NCBI GenBank assembly: GCA_031296915.1
Contig: JAVDPC010000006.1
Span: 1 to 64,000, forward strand
Direction: 5' to 3'
Length of the DNA stretch: 64,000 bases
Origin: Cerasicoccus frondis
Lineage (GTDB): Bacteria > Verrucomicrobiota > Verrucomicrobiia > Opitutales > Cerasicoccaceae
Numbering within the stretch: position 1 is the first letter of the stretch; every line of letters begins with the position of its first letter. Below, piece by piece: positions 19,469 through 62,846 of this stretch. Position numbers and translations under genes: made by a program. Under the pieces are notes generated by a model. That model worked only from the letters and a program-made list of their open reading frames with translations, was not told the origin of the DNA and searched no databases.

Positions 19469-19807
19469 CTAAAGAACTTTTTCGCCGCCTTCGCTGGTGC
19501 GTATGCGCTTAGCGGACTCCAGTGGCAGAACAAAAATTTTGCCGTCCCCAATTTTACCTGTCTTGGCAGCTTCAGAAATTGCAGTGATGGCTAACTCCAC
19601 TTTGTCATCATTGACGCCAATGTAGAGAATTAGCTTTGGGAGGAAGTCTACTCGGTATTCATTACCGCGATAGATTTCAGTGTGACCTTTCTGTCGGCCA
19701 AATCCTTTTACTTCTGCGAGGGTCAACCCCTCGATGCCTGCTTTCTGCAAGGCGTTTTTTACGTCATCCAGACGGAATGGTTTAATTATGGCAGTTACTA
19801 GCTTCAT
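19469..19807 (-). CDS. glnB: P-II nitrogen regulatory protein (GlnB/GlnK)
   Basis: A 112-residue P-II signal protein that trimerises, binds ATP/ADP and 2-oxoglutarate, and controls partners such as AmtB and glutamine synthetase adenylylation. The start MKLVTAIIKPFRLDDVKNAL and the T-loop GHTEIYRGNEYRVDFLPK are intact, with Tyr51, the uridylylation site in proteobacteria. The C-terminal signature is KTGKIGDGKIFVLPLESAKRIRTSEGG. Residue 49 is Asn instead of the more common Ala. It is the last gene of the run, 153 bp downstream of amtB; a perfect hairpin lies in between. By position it is GlnK-like, gating ammonium uptake. Confidence 0.95.
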   Translation of the reverse strand: MKLVTAIIKPFRLDDVKNALQKAGIEGLTLAEVKGFGRQKGHTEIYRGNEYRVDFLPKLILYIGVNDDKVELAITAISEAAKTGKIGDGKIFVLPLESAKRIRTSEGGEKVL

Positions 19808-19960: not shown

Positions 19961-21421
19961 TTAAAGGGGCTCATCTGCATACTGTTGGAAGTCAGCGTAG
20001 GCTTCGTTGCCATGCTCGCCAAGGTCGAGACCTTCCAGCTCTTCTTCAGCACTGACACGCAGACCAACCATCTTGTCGATCGCGAAGAACATGCCGTAGG
20101 AGCAGATGAAGGTGAAGGCGAAGACTGCGGCCACACCCAGAAGCTGGATGCCCAATTGTGAAACACCGCCACCGTAGAACAAGCCGTCCTTGATGCAGGT
20201 TTCAGCGTCCCAGAAAACCGTGTCGATTGCCGAGCTGCCGAAGAAACCGATGGAGAGCGTGCCCCAGGCGCCACAGACGCCGTGAACCGAAACTGCGCCA
20301 ACTGGATCGTCAATCTTGAGCGTGCGCTCAACGAACAGAACAGAGAACACTACGATAACACCACCGATGGCTCCAATGATAACCGCCGAGATGGGCGAAA
20401 CACTCGCGCAAGGAGCCGTGATGGAAACGAGACCTGCCAGGCAGCCGTTAATCGCCATCGAAAGGTCTGGCTTACCAAACTTAGCCCATGTGGCCACGGT
20501 GGCGCCGCAGGTGCCAGCGGCAGCAGCAAGCAAAGTGGTCATCGAAACATAAGCCAGCCCGTCAACGGCAGCCAAAGTCGAGCCTGCATTGAATCCGAAC
20601 CAGCCGAAGAAAAGGATGAAACCGCCGAGGGTCGCCATCGGAAGGTTGTGCCCCGGAATCGGTAGAGGCTTGCCGTCCTCGGAGTATTTGCCTTTACGAG
20701 CACCCAGAATCATCGCGCCAGCAAGACCCGCCCAAGCGCCGACGGAGTGCACCACGGTTGAGCCAGCAAAGTCACGCATCCCCATACCGCCGAGCCAGCC
20801 ATCGCCACTCCAGATCCAGTGACCGGTAATTGGGTAAAGGATAGCCGAAATCATGATCGAATACATCACGTATCCAACGAACTTCGTGCGCTCAGCCATG
20901 GCACCAGAAGCAATGGTCGCTGCGGTTGCCGCGAACACAACTTGGAAAACCCAACCTGCCGCTTCGACAGAAGCTGCGGAAGCATTCTCAGGAGAGACAA
21001 TGGCCGCTTCCATGAAGAAATACTCAGGCGACCAACCAATGAAACCATCACCCGCGCCATACATGAGGGAATAACCGACCGCCAGAAACGCGATCGCGCC
21101 GAAGCTAAAGTCCAGCATGTTCTTCATCATGATGTTACACGCGTTCTTGGCGCGTGTGAGGCCAGACTCGACCATGGCGAATCCAGCCTGCATGAAAAAC
21201 ACAAGCACTGCGGCAATGATCAGCCACAAAATATCGCCTGTGGTCTGAGAAAGCATTGCTGGCGCCTCTTCTGCCGCGGCCTCAACCGCTTCGGCCATGG
21301 CGGCGGTGTCATCTGGTAAAATGTCCTGCGCCTGGGCGGTTAATGTAAACAATGAAAACGCCAGAATGCCGAACAGGCATGTCCACCGTTTCATTTTCAA
21401 GAGGGTGAGTATAGTTGTCAT
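19961..21421 (-). CDS. amtB: Ammonium transporter
   Basis: A 486-residue Amt/Rh channel that conducts ammonia/ammonium across the inner membrane. The N-terminus has a cleavable signal sequence (LFGILAFSLFTLTAQAQ), then an acidic/alanine segment and 11 expected helices. Family motifs are FFMQAGFAMVESGLTRAKNA, DFAGSTVVHSVGAWAGLAGA and VSVHGVCGAWGTLSIG, giving the pore twin histidines, and KMVGLRVSAEEELEGLDLGEHG, the C-terminal tail that contacts GlnK. It is followed by a P-II gene (order amtB-P-II, the reverse of the enterobacterial glnK-amtB). It begins only 18 bp after an NtrC-like gene, so it is probably co-transcribed with it. Confidence 0.95.
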   Translation of the reverse strand: MTTILTLLKMKRWTCLFGILAFSLFTLTAQAQDILPDDTAAMAEAVEAAAEEAPAMLSQTTGDILWLIIAAVLVFFMQAGFAMVESGLTRAKNACNIMMKNMLDFSFGAIAFLAVGYSLMYGAGDGFIGWSPEYFFMEAAIVSPENASAASVEAAGWVFQVVFAATAATIASGAMAERTKFVGYVMYSIMISAILYPITGHWIWSGDGWLGGMGMRDFAGSTVVHSVGAWAGLAGAMILGARKGKYSEDGKPLPIPGHNLPMATLGGFILFFGWFGFNAGSTLAAVDGLAYVSMTTLLAAAAGTCGATVATWAKFGKPDLSMAINGCLAGLVSITAPCASVSPISAVIIGAIGGVIVVFSVLFVERTLKIDDPVGAVSVHGVCGAWGTLSIGFFGSSAIDTVFWDAETCIKDGLFYGGGVSQLGIQLLGVAAVFAFTFICSYGMFFAIDKMVGLRVSAEEELEGLDLGEHGNEAYADFQQYADEPL

Positions 21422-59740: not shown

Positions 59741-60913
59741 TCAGCCCAAATAGGTCAGCACTTTTTCAATGGGCGCGGTGTAAATCGCGACTGTTTCCAG
59801 CTTCTGCTCATTAGTGGCGGCTTGAAGCGACTGGATGATGGGCGCCACTTGATCCTTACTCAGCACCATTTGTAAGCTGCCCAACTCACGGTTAATGCGC
59901 ACACCGGCGCCAGTCAGCTTGCATTCACTCTCCATGAAGCGGCCAAACACCGAAGTCACCGCAGGTGCGCCAGCTTTTAAAACTGCAGCGACCAGGACAT
60001 CCAAATTTTTACGCTTGGTTGTGCAAGTGATGCGCGTCAGGTCGAACAAGTATTTGCGCGAACGCGCGCTCCCAATCCCCAGAAAACTCAAAGCGCCGCC
60101 ACTGCTTTTCTGCTCGTCGATCAAGTTGCTGGTAGCGCGCCAATCTGCGCACCCCTTCAGGTCGTCAATCGCGTGAATAATCTGGTGAATGCTCGCGGCG
60201 TGCCTTGCAGATTCATGCACGCCGGGCAACTTAATCAGCCCGCGGTTGACCCCCATCTGATAGATGATCCCGCGCCCGGGCTCCGTCAGACGACCAGCTG
60301 TCGCCATTGCCTCGAACACGGCCTCAGAGTCCATTTCATCAACGATTACCCGGATGATTTCCTTGTCTGGATTTTGGGTAAAACGCAGAATGCCCAAGCG
60401 GTCGCGCACGCCACGGCCTTCACAGTAGTGAATCGTCGGGCCATGAGCGCCCGCTTTGATCGCCGCGCGGGCCACCGTTTCGGATATCGACGACTGCACC
60501 GTCGCGGCAATGCCCACCAGGTTGCGCTTGAATTTGATCATGCTCAAGCCCGCCTCGGTGTGCTCCCCGTTTTGCCAAACCGGAAAATCGGGCGTCGCCG
60601 TAAAATAGCTGCAAGGGTGAGTAAAAACCGCCCCTGCCCCCGCCAAGCGCAACTGACCGAGCGCCACGATTTGCTCCATGATCACGTCGACTTCATCATG
60701 CGGCAGTAGAAACTGAATAATCTCCTGCTCCGGGCTGATGACGGGAAGTAAAAACTGATACCAGCGGTCCTTGACCAAGGTTCCCCGGGCGCCCAGCTCG
60801 AACAGGAAACGCGCCGGTTTATCCAGCAGAAATTCCGTCACTTCGTTACTCGTGCGGCGTGGCAAAACGGCCGTCACGATGGACATTTTTTTCTGCTCGA
60901 CCCAGTTATCCAT
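59741..60913 (-). CDS. Protein with three P-II-like segments
   Basis: A 390-residue protein that repeats a P-II-superfamily pattern three times. Segment 1 is residues about 10-102 (SIVTAVLPRRTSNEVTEFLL ... GQLRLAGAGAVF); segment 2 about 127-231 (LVGIAATVQSSISETVARAA, IKAGAHGPTIHYCEGRG, ... EPGRGIIYQMGVNRGLIKLPG); segment 3 about 289-390 (DLTRITCTTKRKNLDVLVAA, VLKAGAPAVTSVFGRF). Segment 2 best resembles a nucleotide-type P-II with a T-loop-like stretch after GRG. The start overlaps the stop of the upstream DUF1538 gene by 8 bp. By position it should regulate that membrane protein, as P-II does for AmtB. Confidence 0.75.
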   Translation of the reverse strand: MDNWVEQKKMSIVTAVLPRRTSNEVTEFLLDKPARFLFELGARGTLVKDRWYQFLLPVISPEQEIIQFLLPHDEVDVIMEQIVALGQLRLAGAGAVFTHPCSYFTATPDFPVWQNGEHTEAGLSMIKFKRNLVGIAATVQSSISETVARAAIKAGAHGPTIHYCEGRGVRDRLGILRFTQNPDKEIIRVIVDEMDSEAVFEAMATAGRLTEPGRGIIYQMGVNRGLIKLPGVHESARHAASIHQIIHAIDDLKGCADWRATSNLIDEQKSSGGALSFLGIGSARSRKYLFDLTRITCTTKRKNLDVLVAAVLKAGAPAVTSVFGRFMESECKLTGAGVRINRELGSLQMVLSKDQVAPIIQSLQAATNEQKLETVAIYTAPIEKVLTYLG

Positions 60914-62846
60914 CGGCCAAGCCTCCTTCCACGTGCTCAGCCGCTTCCGCAGTGCGTCGGACGATTAAGCCCACCGTCAGCACGGTAATAATCGGCCCCA
61001 CGGACGCCAAAGCCAAAACGCCAAAGCCATCGATCACGCCTGGGACATTGGCGCCAATGCCGAGGCCCATCGCCAGCACCAGCGGCACGGTAATCGGCCC
61101 CGTCGTCACGCCCGCGCTATCCCAGCCGAAATTGACGAATTCCTCCGTGGAAATATAGGTCAGGAACAGCAGTAAAATATACGGCGGAATGAGCAACCAG
61201 GCCAACGGCAAGTTATAGGCGATTTTGCAAACCCCAGTCGCAATGCCGATGCCCACCCCGATCGCCACCGACTGCATCAGCAGGTTCTTGCGAAACGCGC
61301 CGGCGGTGATTTTTTGCACGGTTACGCCCAACGCATTTAGAGCCGGCTCAGCCAACGTCGCGCCATAACCGAGCAGGAAGCCAAACAGCACTGCGATTAT
61401 TTTCCCAAAGTGCTCGGCATTGACCAACGGTCCAAAGCTCGCCTCAATGCCCCAAGGGCTGATTGAGGCAAACGTCGCCGGAATATTGCTCCCTAATTGT
61501 TCGCCCAGTGGCGTGAGTCCCATCGTGATTCCCAGCCCGAACAACGCCATCCCGGCCAGGGAGAAAACAATGCCAACCATCAACTGATCCAAATCGCGAA
61601 TCGGCTCTTTAACCAAGAGTTTCAGGATTACGAACAGGAAAATAACCAACGGCACAATGGCTTGCAGCGCGCCAAACAGCGCTGTCTTGAATTCTTTGGG
61701 AAAGTCCGCCTGTGGGTCCCACTCTTCAATATCTTGCGCCCACAAGGAAGGGTCTTCATGCCGCTCATACACCACTCGGGCCCCGCTTTGCACCAGGCGT
61801 CCATTCACGAGTTGGGTTTCCCCGCCTTCAAAGCGAACGGTGACGTCTTCCGGCAAATCCCCGGTGAGCAGGAAATTCTGAAACTCGCCTTCCGAAATCG
61901 GTTCTTTCGCCATCAACGGCGCAGCTTCGACGTCCTGCAGTAAAGCCAGAGGCGGATCCGCAGTTTCCACGTTAAACTCCGGCAGCACAGTCTGCTCCAC
62001 CTCGCCAGTGTAGTTTGGCGCACCGACATAATCCTGCGCCGCATAGTGATACAAACCCAGCAGCAGCACCGCAATAATCGGGAACAGCGAAGCCAGCGTC
62101 ACAATGCCAAAACCAGCATTACTGGAATCCTCGTCGCCAACGATGCGGCAGACGCCAATGCCCAGCGCCAGCACCAGCGGAACAGTCACCGGGCCCGTTG
62201 TCACCGCGCCACAGTCCCAGGCCAAGCCTACAATTGGCGCAAGCACGTCGTTAAAATGCGCATAGACCGTTAGCCCCGCCAGGAGCCCGATCAGCGGCAT
62301 GATGAACATTTTCAGCGACCAGCCGCGGAAAAACCGCAAGACGCCGAGCAACACTGCAATGCCCACGCCAATCGCCACACTGACCACGAGCTGCGTCGAA
62401 AAGTCATTCAGCAAACTGTAGAGCAACGGCGCGTCATTGGGACGAACACCGGCCCCCGCAGCTCGCAACACCGCAATCGCCGGTTCAGCAAAGGTGGCCA
62501 GGCCCCCCAGCACGAAGGCAAAAGCCAGGATCGCCGGCAGCTTGGCGTTTCGTGGTAAAACCGCGCCAATGATTTCTCCCAGCGGCATCAGCCCAAGGCG
62601 CAACCCTTCCATGAAAAACATCAACCCCAGCGCCACAACAAACACGCCGACGCCGATCATCCCAGCATAGACCAGCGGAACGCCGAGGATCAGGATCTGG
62701 AACGCCGCCAGGTAAACGATGATGAACCAGATGCTCTTGACCTGCTCAAAAAATTTATCGCGAAAGTAAGGCGTCAACAAGCGAAGCGTGCCCCGAAGCC
62801 CCAGCTTCGGCGTACTCCAGCCCATTGACTGACCCTCGCTCGCCAT
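60906..62846 (-). CDS. Tandem DUF1538 membrane protein
   Basis: A 646-residue polytopic membrane protein made of two homologous halves. Each half holds the signature WD-x2-x-VTTGPxTVPLVLAxGxG: WDCGAVTTGPVTVPLVLALG (residue 210) and WDSAGVTTGPITVPLVLAMG (residue 575). The halves also share FAEPAIAVLRAAG and LAEPALNALG. A soluble acidic insert of about 115 residues (275-390) lies between. DUF1538 proteins are presumed transporters with unknown substrate and are often encoded beside P-II-like proteins. The start at 62846 is 115 bp from the upstream plsC stop; ATG 62825 is an alternative. It is coupled to the downstream triple P-II-like gene. Confidence 0.88.
   Translation of the reverse strand: MASEGQSMGWSTPKLGLRGTLRLLTPYFRDKFFEQVKSIWFIIVYLAAFQILILGVPLVYAGMIGVGVFVVALGLMFFMEGLRLGLMPLGEIIGAVLPRNAKLPAILAFAFVLGGLATFAEPAIAVLRAAGAGVRPNDAPLLYSLLNDFSTQLVVSVAIGVGIAVLLGVLRFFRGWSLKMFIMPLIGLLAGLTVYAHFNDVLAPIVGLAWDCGAVTTGPVTVPLVLALGIGVCRIVGDEDSSNAGFGIVTLASLFPIIAVLLLGLYHYAAQDYVGAPNYTGEVEQTVLPEFNVETADPPLALLQDVEAAPLMAKEPISEGEFQNFLLTGDLPEDVTVRFEGGETQLVNGRLVQSGARVVYERHEDPSLWAQDIEEWDPQADFPKEFKTALFGALQAIVPLVIFLFVILKLLVKEPIRDLDQLMVGIVFSLAGMALFGLGITMGLTPLGEQLGSNIPATFASISPWGIEASFGPLVNAEHFGKIIAVLFGFLLGYGATLAEPALNALGVTVQKITAGAFRKNLLMQSVAIGVGIGIATGVCKIAYNLPLAWLLIPPYILLLFLTYISTEEFVNFGWDSAGVTTGPITVPLVLAMGLGIGANVPGVIDGFGVLALASVGPIITVLTVGLIVRRTAEAAEHVEGGLADG

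What the first reader, a model, noticed from the sequence alone, without database searches (positions are those of the whole stretch)
59741..62846. Three P-II-like domains in one chain, coupled to a tandem DUF1538 membrane protein
The 390-residue partner of the DUF1538 protein reads as three successive P-II-like segments. Because P-II proteins work as trimers, a single chain could form a pseudo-trimer that sits on the duplicated channel-like protein, analogous to GlnK on AmtB. The genes overlap by 8 bp. A fused three-segment form with diverged first and third segments and a possible nucleotide-type middle segment would be an unusual signalling unit for an uncharacterised transporter.
Basis: partly seen in the sequence, partly recalled or inferred. 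Interest (0 to 1): 0.72.

Follow-up and report, generated by a model that had tools for sequence, protein, structure and literature searches.

The report
Three-in-one PII valve beside cation antiporter
A Cerasicoccus-like bacterium encodes three PII-like segments in one protein chain, in a gene that overlaps the gene of a fused membrane protein predicted to exchange sodium or potassium for protons; the chain is predicted to form a one-chain version of the usual PII trimer and likely works as a valve on that antiporter, which would carry PII control beyond nitrogen and carbon.

Summary
All three segments of the 390-aa protein match a canonical PII profile (probability 94-96; shuffled controls at most 9), each is predicted to have the PII strand-helix order, and the genes overlap by 8 bp. 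The membrane partner belongs to a family with a known activity: its halves resemble UmpA and UmpB, and UmpAB of Halomonas is a published Na+(Li+,K+)/H+ antiporter. New here: the link is general. In 101 of 106 DUF1538 loci examined, a PII-like gene follows directly on the same strand; two of the five misses are at contig ends. Partners have one segment, two (fused or as two genes) or three; 13 of 13 judgeable long fused antiporters have three. T-loops are the best conserved parts of segments 1 and 2; segment 3 has lost the motifs. Best reading: a one-chain, asymmetric PII pseudo-trimer that docks on a fused UmpAB-type antiporter and gates it. Docking, gating, ligand and ring geometry are inferred; canonical ATP-site residues are mostly missing. 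None of eight DUF1538/UmpAB papers in the held library mentions PII.

The parts
59741..60913 (-). 390-aa protein with three PII-like segments
   Evidence: ORF; Pfam P-II 34.4 bits over the middle; profile comparisons; AlphaFold2 model
60602..60889 (-). PII-like segment 1 (residues 9-104): conserved T-loop (41-64) and B-loop glycines, K58-equivalent mostly lost
60212..60523 (-). PII-like segment 2 (residues 131-234): fullest motif set (T-loop 164-185, K58-equivalent, B-loop glycines)
60128..60193 (-). conserved linker helix region between segments 2 and 3 (residues 241-262)
   Evidence: as conserved (0.65) as segment 2 (0.66) among 45 distant homologs; helices in model
59744..60049 (-). PII-like segment 3 (residues 289-390): PII fold predicted, site motifs lost
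60906..62846 (-). 646-aa fused DUF1538-DUF1538 membrane protein, UmpA-UmpB type
   Evidence: Pfam DUF1538 370 bits; NCBIfam UmpA 213 bits and UmpB 186 bits, below cut-offs 490 and 500; AlphaFold2 pTM 0.83
62052..62747 (-). UmpA-like half (residues 34-265)
60960..61688 (-). UmpB-like half (residues 387-629)
61704..62036 (-). acidic linker between the halves (residues 271-381), predicted to lie outside the cell membrane's cytoplasmic side, with a predicted beta hairpin
   Evidence: model, charge counts
60906..60913 (-). 8-bp overlap of the two genes
60922..60927 (-). AGGAGG, likely ribosome-binding site of the PII-like gene
   Evidence: sequence

Best explanation
Three PII-like segments in one chain are encoded directly behind, and overlapping, a fused UmpA-UmpB-type membrane protein that is predicted to exchange Na+/Li+/K+ for protons, and the chain likely folds into a one-chain PII pseudo-trimer that would dock on the antiporter's cytoplasmic face and gate it. 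Shown: the three segments, the gene overlap, the near-constant pairing of DUF1538 genes with a downstream PII-like gene in the loci examined, and the graded motif loss (segments 1 and 2 keep conserved T-loops and B-loop glycines, segment 3 does not). Inferred: segments 1 and 2 offer their T-loops to the two homologous halves of the antiporter, segment 3 mainly completes the ring, and a small ligand bound near segment 2 moves the T-loops and so blocks or frees transport. Overlapping genes would help to keep the two proteins in fixed proportion.
For: Three PII-like segments. Pairing: 101 of 106 DUF1538 loci have a PII-like gene directly downstream on the same strand, and only two PII-like ORFs lie elsewhere in these 1.09 Mb; 7 of 7 fetched plasmid loci (9 records found) have it too. 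13 of 13 judgeable long fused antiporters have a three-segment partner. T-loops are the best conserved parts of segments 1 and 2 (0.72 against 0.52 and 0.77 against 0.64), not clearly so in segment 3 (0.52 against 0.45). pTM 0.78 for a three-domain chain suggests a fixed packing of the domains (inference). UmpAB worked in E. coli from a clone that ends with umpA and umpB, as expected if the partner is a regulator rather than a needed subunit; whether Halomonas has the partner was not seen. The same window holds an amtB-P-II gene pair, also transporter first.
Against: No complex was predicted or observed, and the model's coordinates could not be inspected, so ring geometry is untested. The halves score far below the UmpA and UmpB equivalog cut-offs, so cation/proton exchange is itself inferred. 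Canonical D88, K90, R101 and R103 carry other letters in second segments, which weakens a GlnK-type ATP switch. Three loci (L072, L086, L094) have DUF1538 genes without a partner. Two-segment partners, the commonest kind here, cannot form a simple one-chain trimer.
Confidence: 0.58

Rival explanations
1. The chain is a PII regulator of the antiporter but not a pseudo-trimer: several chains assemble so that like segments trimerise with like, giving stacked PII rings.
For: Two-segment partners are the commonest kind in the sample (38 of 45 short fused pairs and 16 of 38 separate pairs) and would most simply form stacked rings; linkers between the segments are long and poorly conserved in part.
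Against: pTM 0.78 for the single chain; segment 3 has lost the site motifs, which a homotrimeric ring of segment 3 would then lack three times over.
Confidence: 0.2
2. The PII-like protein is a structural or assembly subunit of the antiporter, without ligand-controlled gating.
For: Constant co-encoding and gene overlap; canonical ATP-site residues mostly missing.
Against: Antiport activity was shown for UmpA and UmpB alone in E. coli (PMC5484666); three loci do without the partner; motifs of the presumed site (G35, G37, K58, G89) are kept in 19-20 of 20 single-segment partners.
Confidence: 0.12
3. The protein is an ordinary nitrogen-sensing PII with soluble targets that happens to sit beside the antiporter gene.
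For: Databases name many homologs 'P-II family nitrogen regulator'; PII proteins have many soluble targets (recalled).
Against: The genome has two ordinary P-II genes besides it; this clade has its own T-loop (15 residues between G37 and K58 instead of 20) without a counterpart of Tyr51; the pairing holds across Bacillota, Verrucomicrobiota, archaea and Alphaproteobacteria.
Confidence: 0.06

Closest known systems
GlnK-AmtB (PII protein on the ammonium transporter)
   Same: PII fold; transporter gene directly followed by a PII-type gene, also in this window; regulation of the transporter by a docked T-loop is the model borrowed here (recalled).
   Different: Target is a DUF1538 protein, not Amt; three segments in one chain; T-loop shorter (15-16 residues between G37 and K58 against 20); no Tyr51 counterpart and canonical D88, K90, R101, R103 mostly replaced.
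UmpAB of Halomonas zhaodongensis (DUF1538 antiporter pair, PMC5484666)
   Same: Two homologous DUF1538 halves in the order UmpA, UmpB.
   Different: Fused into one chain with a linker; below the equivalog cut-offs; activity not tested. The paper does not mention PII.
Single- and two-segment PII-like partners of other DUF1538 loci
   Same: Same place behind the DUF1538 gene, same strand; segment 2 matches the single-segment profile best (probability 99.7).
   Different: One or two segments instead of three; the two-segment fusions group apart from the three-segment form in the tree.
SbtB-SbtA (PII-like protein on a bicarbonate transporter; recalled)
   Same: A PII-like protein as regulator of a transporter other than Amt (recalled; listing only).
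   Different: SbtB chains match the single-segment profile only over positions 10-48 at E 0.086.

Membership tests
PII superfamily (P-II, PF00543) | sequence homology to PII | tested here: met
   Pfam for segment 2; 60 of 60 homologs match P-II at E up to 0.01; profile comparison for all three segments. In two of ten other partners scanned Pfam fell below its cut-off or gave nothing (L052, L056).
PII superfamily (P-II, PF00543) | beta-alpha-beta-beta-alpha-beta fold | tested here: met
   three times in the model; structural matches for segments 2 and 3
PII superfamily (P-II, PF00543) | trimeric ring | not testable with these tools
   no coordinates and no complex prediction; pTM 0.78 is only suggestive
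GlnB/GlnK (canonical PII) | ATP-site residues D88, K90, R101, R103 (roles recalled; numbering of the genome's own GlnB) | tested here: not met
   replaced in nearly all second segments and in first and third ones by the letters listed; exceptions among relatives: R103 is R in 19 of 55 second segments of two-segment fusions, D88 is D in 19 of 74 third segments
GlnB/GlnK (canonical PII) | T-loop with Tyr51 (uridylylation site; recalled) | tested here: not met
   gap at this column in 74 of 74 second segments, 62 of 74 first and 70 of 74 third
DUF1538 (PF07556) | Pfam match above cut-off | tested here: met
   370 bits, two stretches, cut-off 22.6
UmpAB Na+(Li+,K+)/H+ antiporter | NCBIfam equivalog cut-offs (490 and 500 bits) | tested here: not met
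   213.1 and 186.3 bits
UmpAB Na+(Li+,K+)/H+ antiporter | antiport activity | not testable with these tools
   needs vesicle assays
SbtB | sequence match to solved SbtB chains | tested here: inconclusive
   partial weak match only (positions 10-48, E 0.086)

The most novel reading that the evidence does not exclude
UmpAB-type cation/proton antiporters and a dedicated PII-like clade form a further general transporter-PII pair, spread over bacteria and archaea. In Verrucomicrobiota and some Gammaproteobacteria the PII trimer has become one asymmetric chain with two working T-loops, one for each half of the fused, probably antiparallel antiporter, and one blank segment that closes the ring: a three-fold regulator reshaped to fit a two-fold target, sensing a signal other than nitrogen.
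Probability: 0.4. Interest if true: 0.8.

Novelty: new variant of a known kind. Interest (0 to 1): 0.62.

Why it matters
PII control of transport is known for ammonium and bicarbonate (recalled). A general PII link to a sodium/potassium-proton antiporter family would bring PII signalling into pH and salt homeostasis and would give a likely regulator to a transporter family whose first activity was reported in 2017. A natural one-chain PII with one or two usable sites would let one ask how many T-loops and ligands are needed to shut a transporter, which homotrimers make hard to test.

Tried and rejected

Literature: DUF1538 (5 papers) and UmpAB (9 papers, two unrelated by title) give eight relevant papers; I searched the text of each for PII and P-II: none in seven, and one 'PII' in PMC7221264 that seems to be part of a printed motif sequence. 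Only passages were seen, plus section 5 of PMC5484666. Five PII searches were read as listings only, four of them cut to 15 or 20 rows, and show no title that links PII to DUF1538. Subscription papers are mostly not held.

Limits: a survey of Pseudomonadota genomes could not be run. Three-segment proteins named as Pseudomonadota or Gammaproteobacteria are, without gene context; 23 of the 61 longest-contig lengths recur among the 120 DUF1538 proteins listed (compared by eye), which suggests shared contigs but not adjacency. One weak hit (G337, below cut-off) was not examined. Five of 106 loci (L039, L043, L050, L063, L089) were set aside as cut by contig ends for the table; of the other 101, 98 have a partner. 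The position counts list only the three commonest letters.

Full report
The finding concerns two overlapping minus-strand genes near the right end of the window. The upstream gene (60906-62846) encodes 646 aa, the downstream one (59741-60913) 390 aa; they share 8 bp, and an AGGAGG site lies 8 nt before the second ATG, inside the end of the first gene. Homologs of both proteins at 80-91% identity bear Cerasicoccus names (Verrucomicrobiota), so the genome is of or near that genus.

The membrane partner. Both halves are DUF1538 (370 bits), the first closest to UmpA (213 bits), the second to UmpB (186 bits), both far below the equivalog cut-offs of 490 and 500. UmpA and UmpB of Halomonas zhaodongensis form a heterodimer with Na+(Li+,K+)/H+ antiport activity in E. 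coli KNabc (PMC5484666; abstract and passages). The cloned fragment held one truncated and three intact ORFs, the last two being umpA and umpB, so activity there needed no downstream partner (section 5). In our protein and its homologs both halves carry conserved AEP and D.G..(T)TG motifs. The model has pTM 0.83 and no clear relative in the PDB. Loop charges (K+R means over 76 homologs) suggest that the UmpA-like half has its N terminus inside and C terminus outside and the UmpB-like half the reverse, with the acidic linker outside and the C terminus inside; this is inference by the positive-inside rule.

The link is general. In 387 Verrucomicrobiota genomes, 27 had a DUF1538 match, 26 above the cut-off; none of 14 control genomes had one. 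I fetched 26 loci from the 25 other genomes above the cut-off. From named genomes I took the 80 best loci of one UmpB-based scan. Of these 106 loci, 101 have a PII-like gene directly downstream on the same strand (25 of 26 and 76 of 80). The five misses are L039 and L063, where the contig ends at the gene, and L072, L086 and L094 (Sutcliffiella, Sutcliffiella, Metabacillus), where other genes follow. Only two PII-like ORFs lie elsewhere in these 1.09 Mb. Seven plasmid loci fetched of nine records found all have the partner. The records are mostly Bacillota and Verrucomicrobiota, with archaea, Alphaproteobacteria, Aminicenantes and others.

Architecture. With five loci at contig ends set aside, the partners of the other 101 are: separate UmpA and UmpB genes, 14 with one segment, 5 with two single-segment genes, 16 with a two-segment fusion, 3 with none; short fused DUF1538 pairs, 38 with a two-segment fusion and 7 with two genes; long fused pairs, 13 of 13 with three segments; one 587-aa fused pair (L055) with one segment; lone DUF1538 genes, 4 of 4 with one segment. 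Three segments thus go with the long fused antiporter, this window's kind.

Origin. In a tree of 122 segments (108 columns, many forks weak) segments 1, 2 and 3 of the three-segment form each form one group (support 87/65, 98/85, 97/91); segments 2 and 3 are sisters (89/96) with the single segment of L055 beside them (82/93), while the two-segment fusions group elsewhere and their first segments fall in two places. The simplest reading is one triplication in an L055-like line and separate doublings elsewhere. The place of segment 1, next to canonical PII on long branches, is not trusted.

Sites, numbered by the genome's own GlnB (L003); one search lists the three commonest letters for each position. 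Single-segment partners keep G35, G37 and K58 in 20 of 20, G87 in 16 and G89 in 19. Second segments of the three-segment form keep G35 and G37 in 73, K58 in 71, G87 and G89 in 74 of 74. First segments keep G87 in 72 and G89 in 73 but K58 in only 13 of 74. In third segments none of these is the commonest letter. Canonical K90 and R101 are replaced in all 20 single-segment partners and in nearly all second segments; D88 and R103 are mostly replaced, but R103 is R in 19 of 55 second segments of two-segment fusions and D88 is D in 19 of 74 third segments. Between G37 and K58 there are 20 residues in canonical PII, 15 in single and second segments, 16 (median) in first segments. Among the 45 most distant homologs the T-loops are the best conserved parts of segments 1 (0.72 against 0.52) and 2 (0.77 against 0.64); in segment 3 the difference is small (0.52 against 0.45); a linker helix region before segment 3 (241-262) is as conserved (0.65) as segment 2.

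How it most likely works. By analogy with GlnK on AmtB (an amtB gene followed by a P-II gene lies at 21421-19469 of this window), the PII-like protein would sit on the cytoplasmic face of the antiporter and gate it, with T-loops as plugs and a small ligand deciding. The three-segment form would be a one-chain ring in which two segments keep working T-loops, matching the two homologous halves of the antiporter, and the third closes the ring. The high pTM of a three-domain chain suggests a fixed packing, but the ring itself was not seen. The ligand is open: the clade's own conserved residues argue for a site, the missing canonical residues against plain GlnK-type ATP binding.

Known and new. That a DUF1538 pair is an antiporter and that PII proteins regulate transporters are known. 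The general pairing, the one-two-three series and the one-chain asymmetric PII were not found in the eight relevant held papers that name DUF1538 or UmpAB, nor by title in five capped PII searches. This is no proof of priority. I rate it a new variant of a known kind.

Noticed in passing
window 19469-19807 (-) and 19961-21421 (-): A P-II gene (101 bits) lies directly behind an ammonium transporter gene (PF00909, 420 bits): the classical GlnK-AmtB arrangement in the same window.
   Followed up: partly
window 60906-62846: Loop charges suggest that the two homologous halves of the fused DUF1538 protein have opposite orientation in the membrane (inverted pair); lone DUF1538 genes (L057-L060) would then need another solution, such as dual topology.
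   Followed up: partly
window 60128-60193 (residues 241-262 of the 390-aa protein): A linker motif around QIIHAIDDLKGCADWR, with invariant D250, G254, W258 and R259 in 60 homologs, is better conserved than segment 3; role unknown, perhaps docking.
   Followed up: no
L067, L069, L077, L078: UmpB-like genes of these Syntrophomonadaceae loci are 60-90 aa longer at the C-terminal side than usual (304-332 aa); the extension was not analysed.
   Followed up: no
L039 (G107:C44): DUF1538 gene at a contig end whose second half is read in two different frames (985-aa and 171-aa ORFs); frameshift or assembly error not resolved.
   Followed up: no
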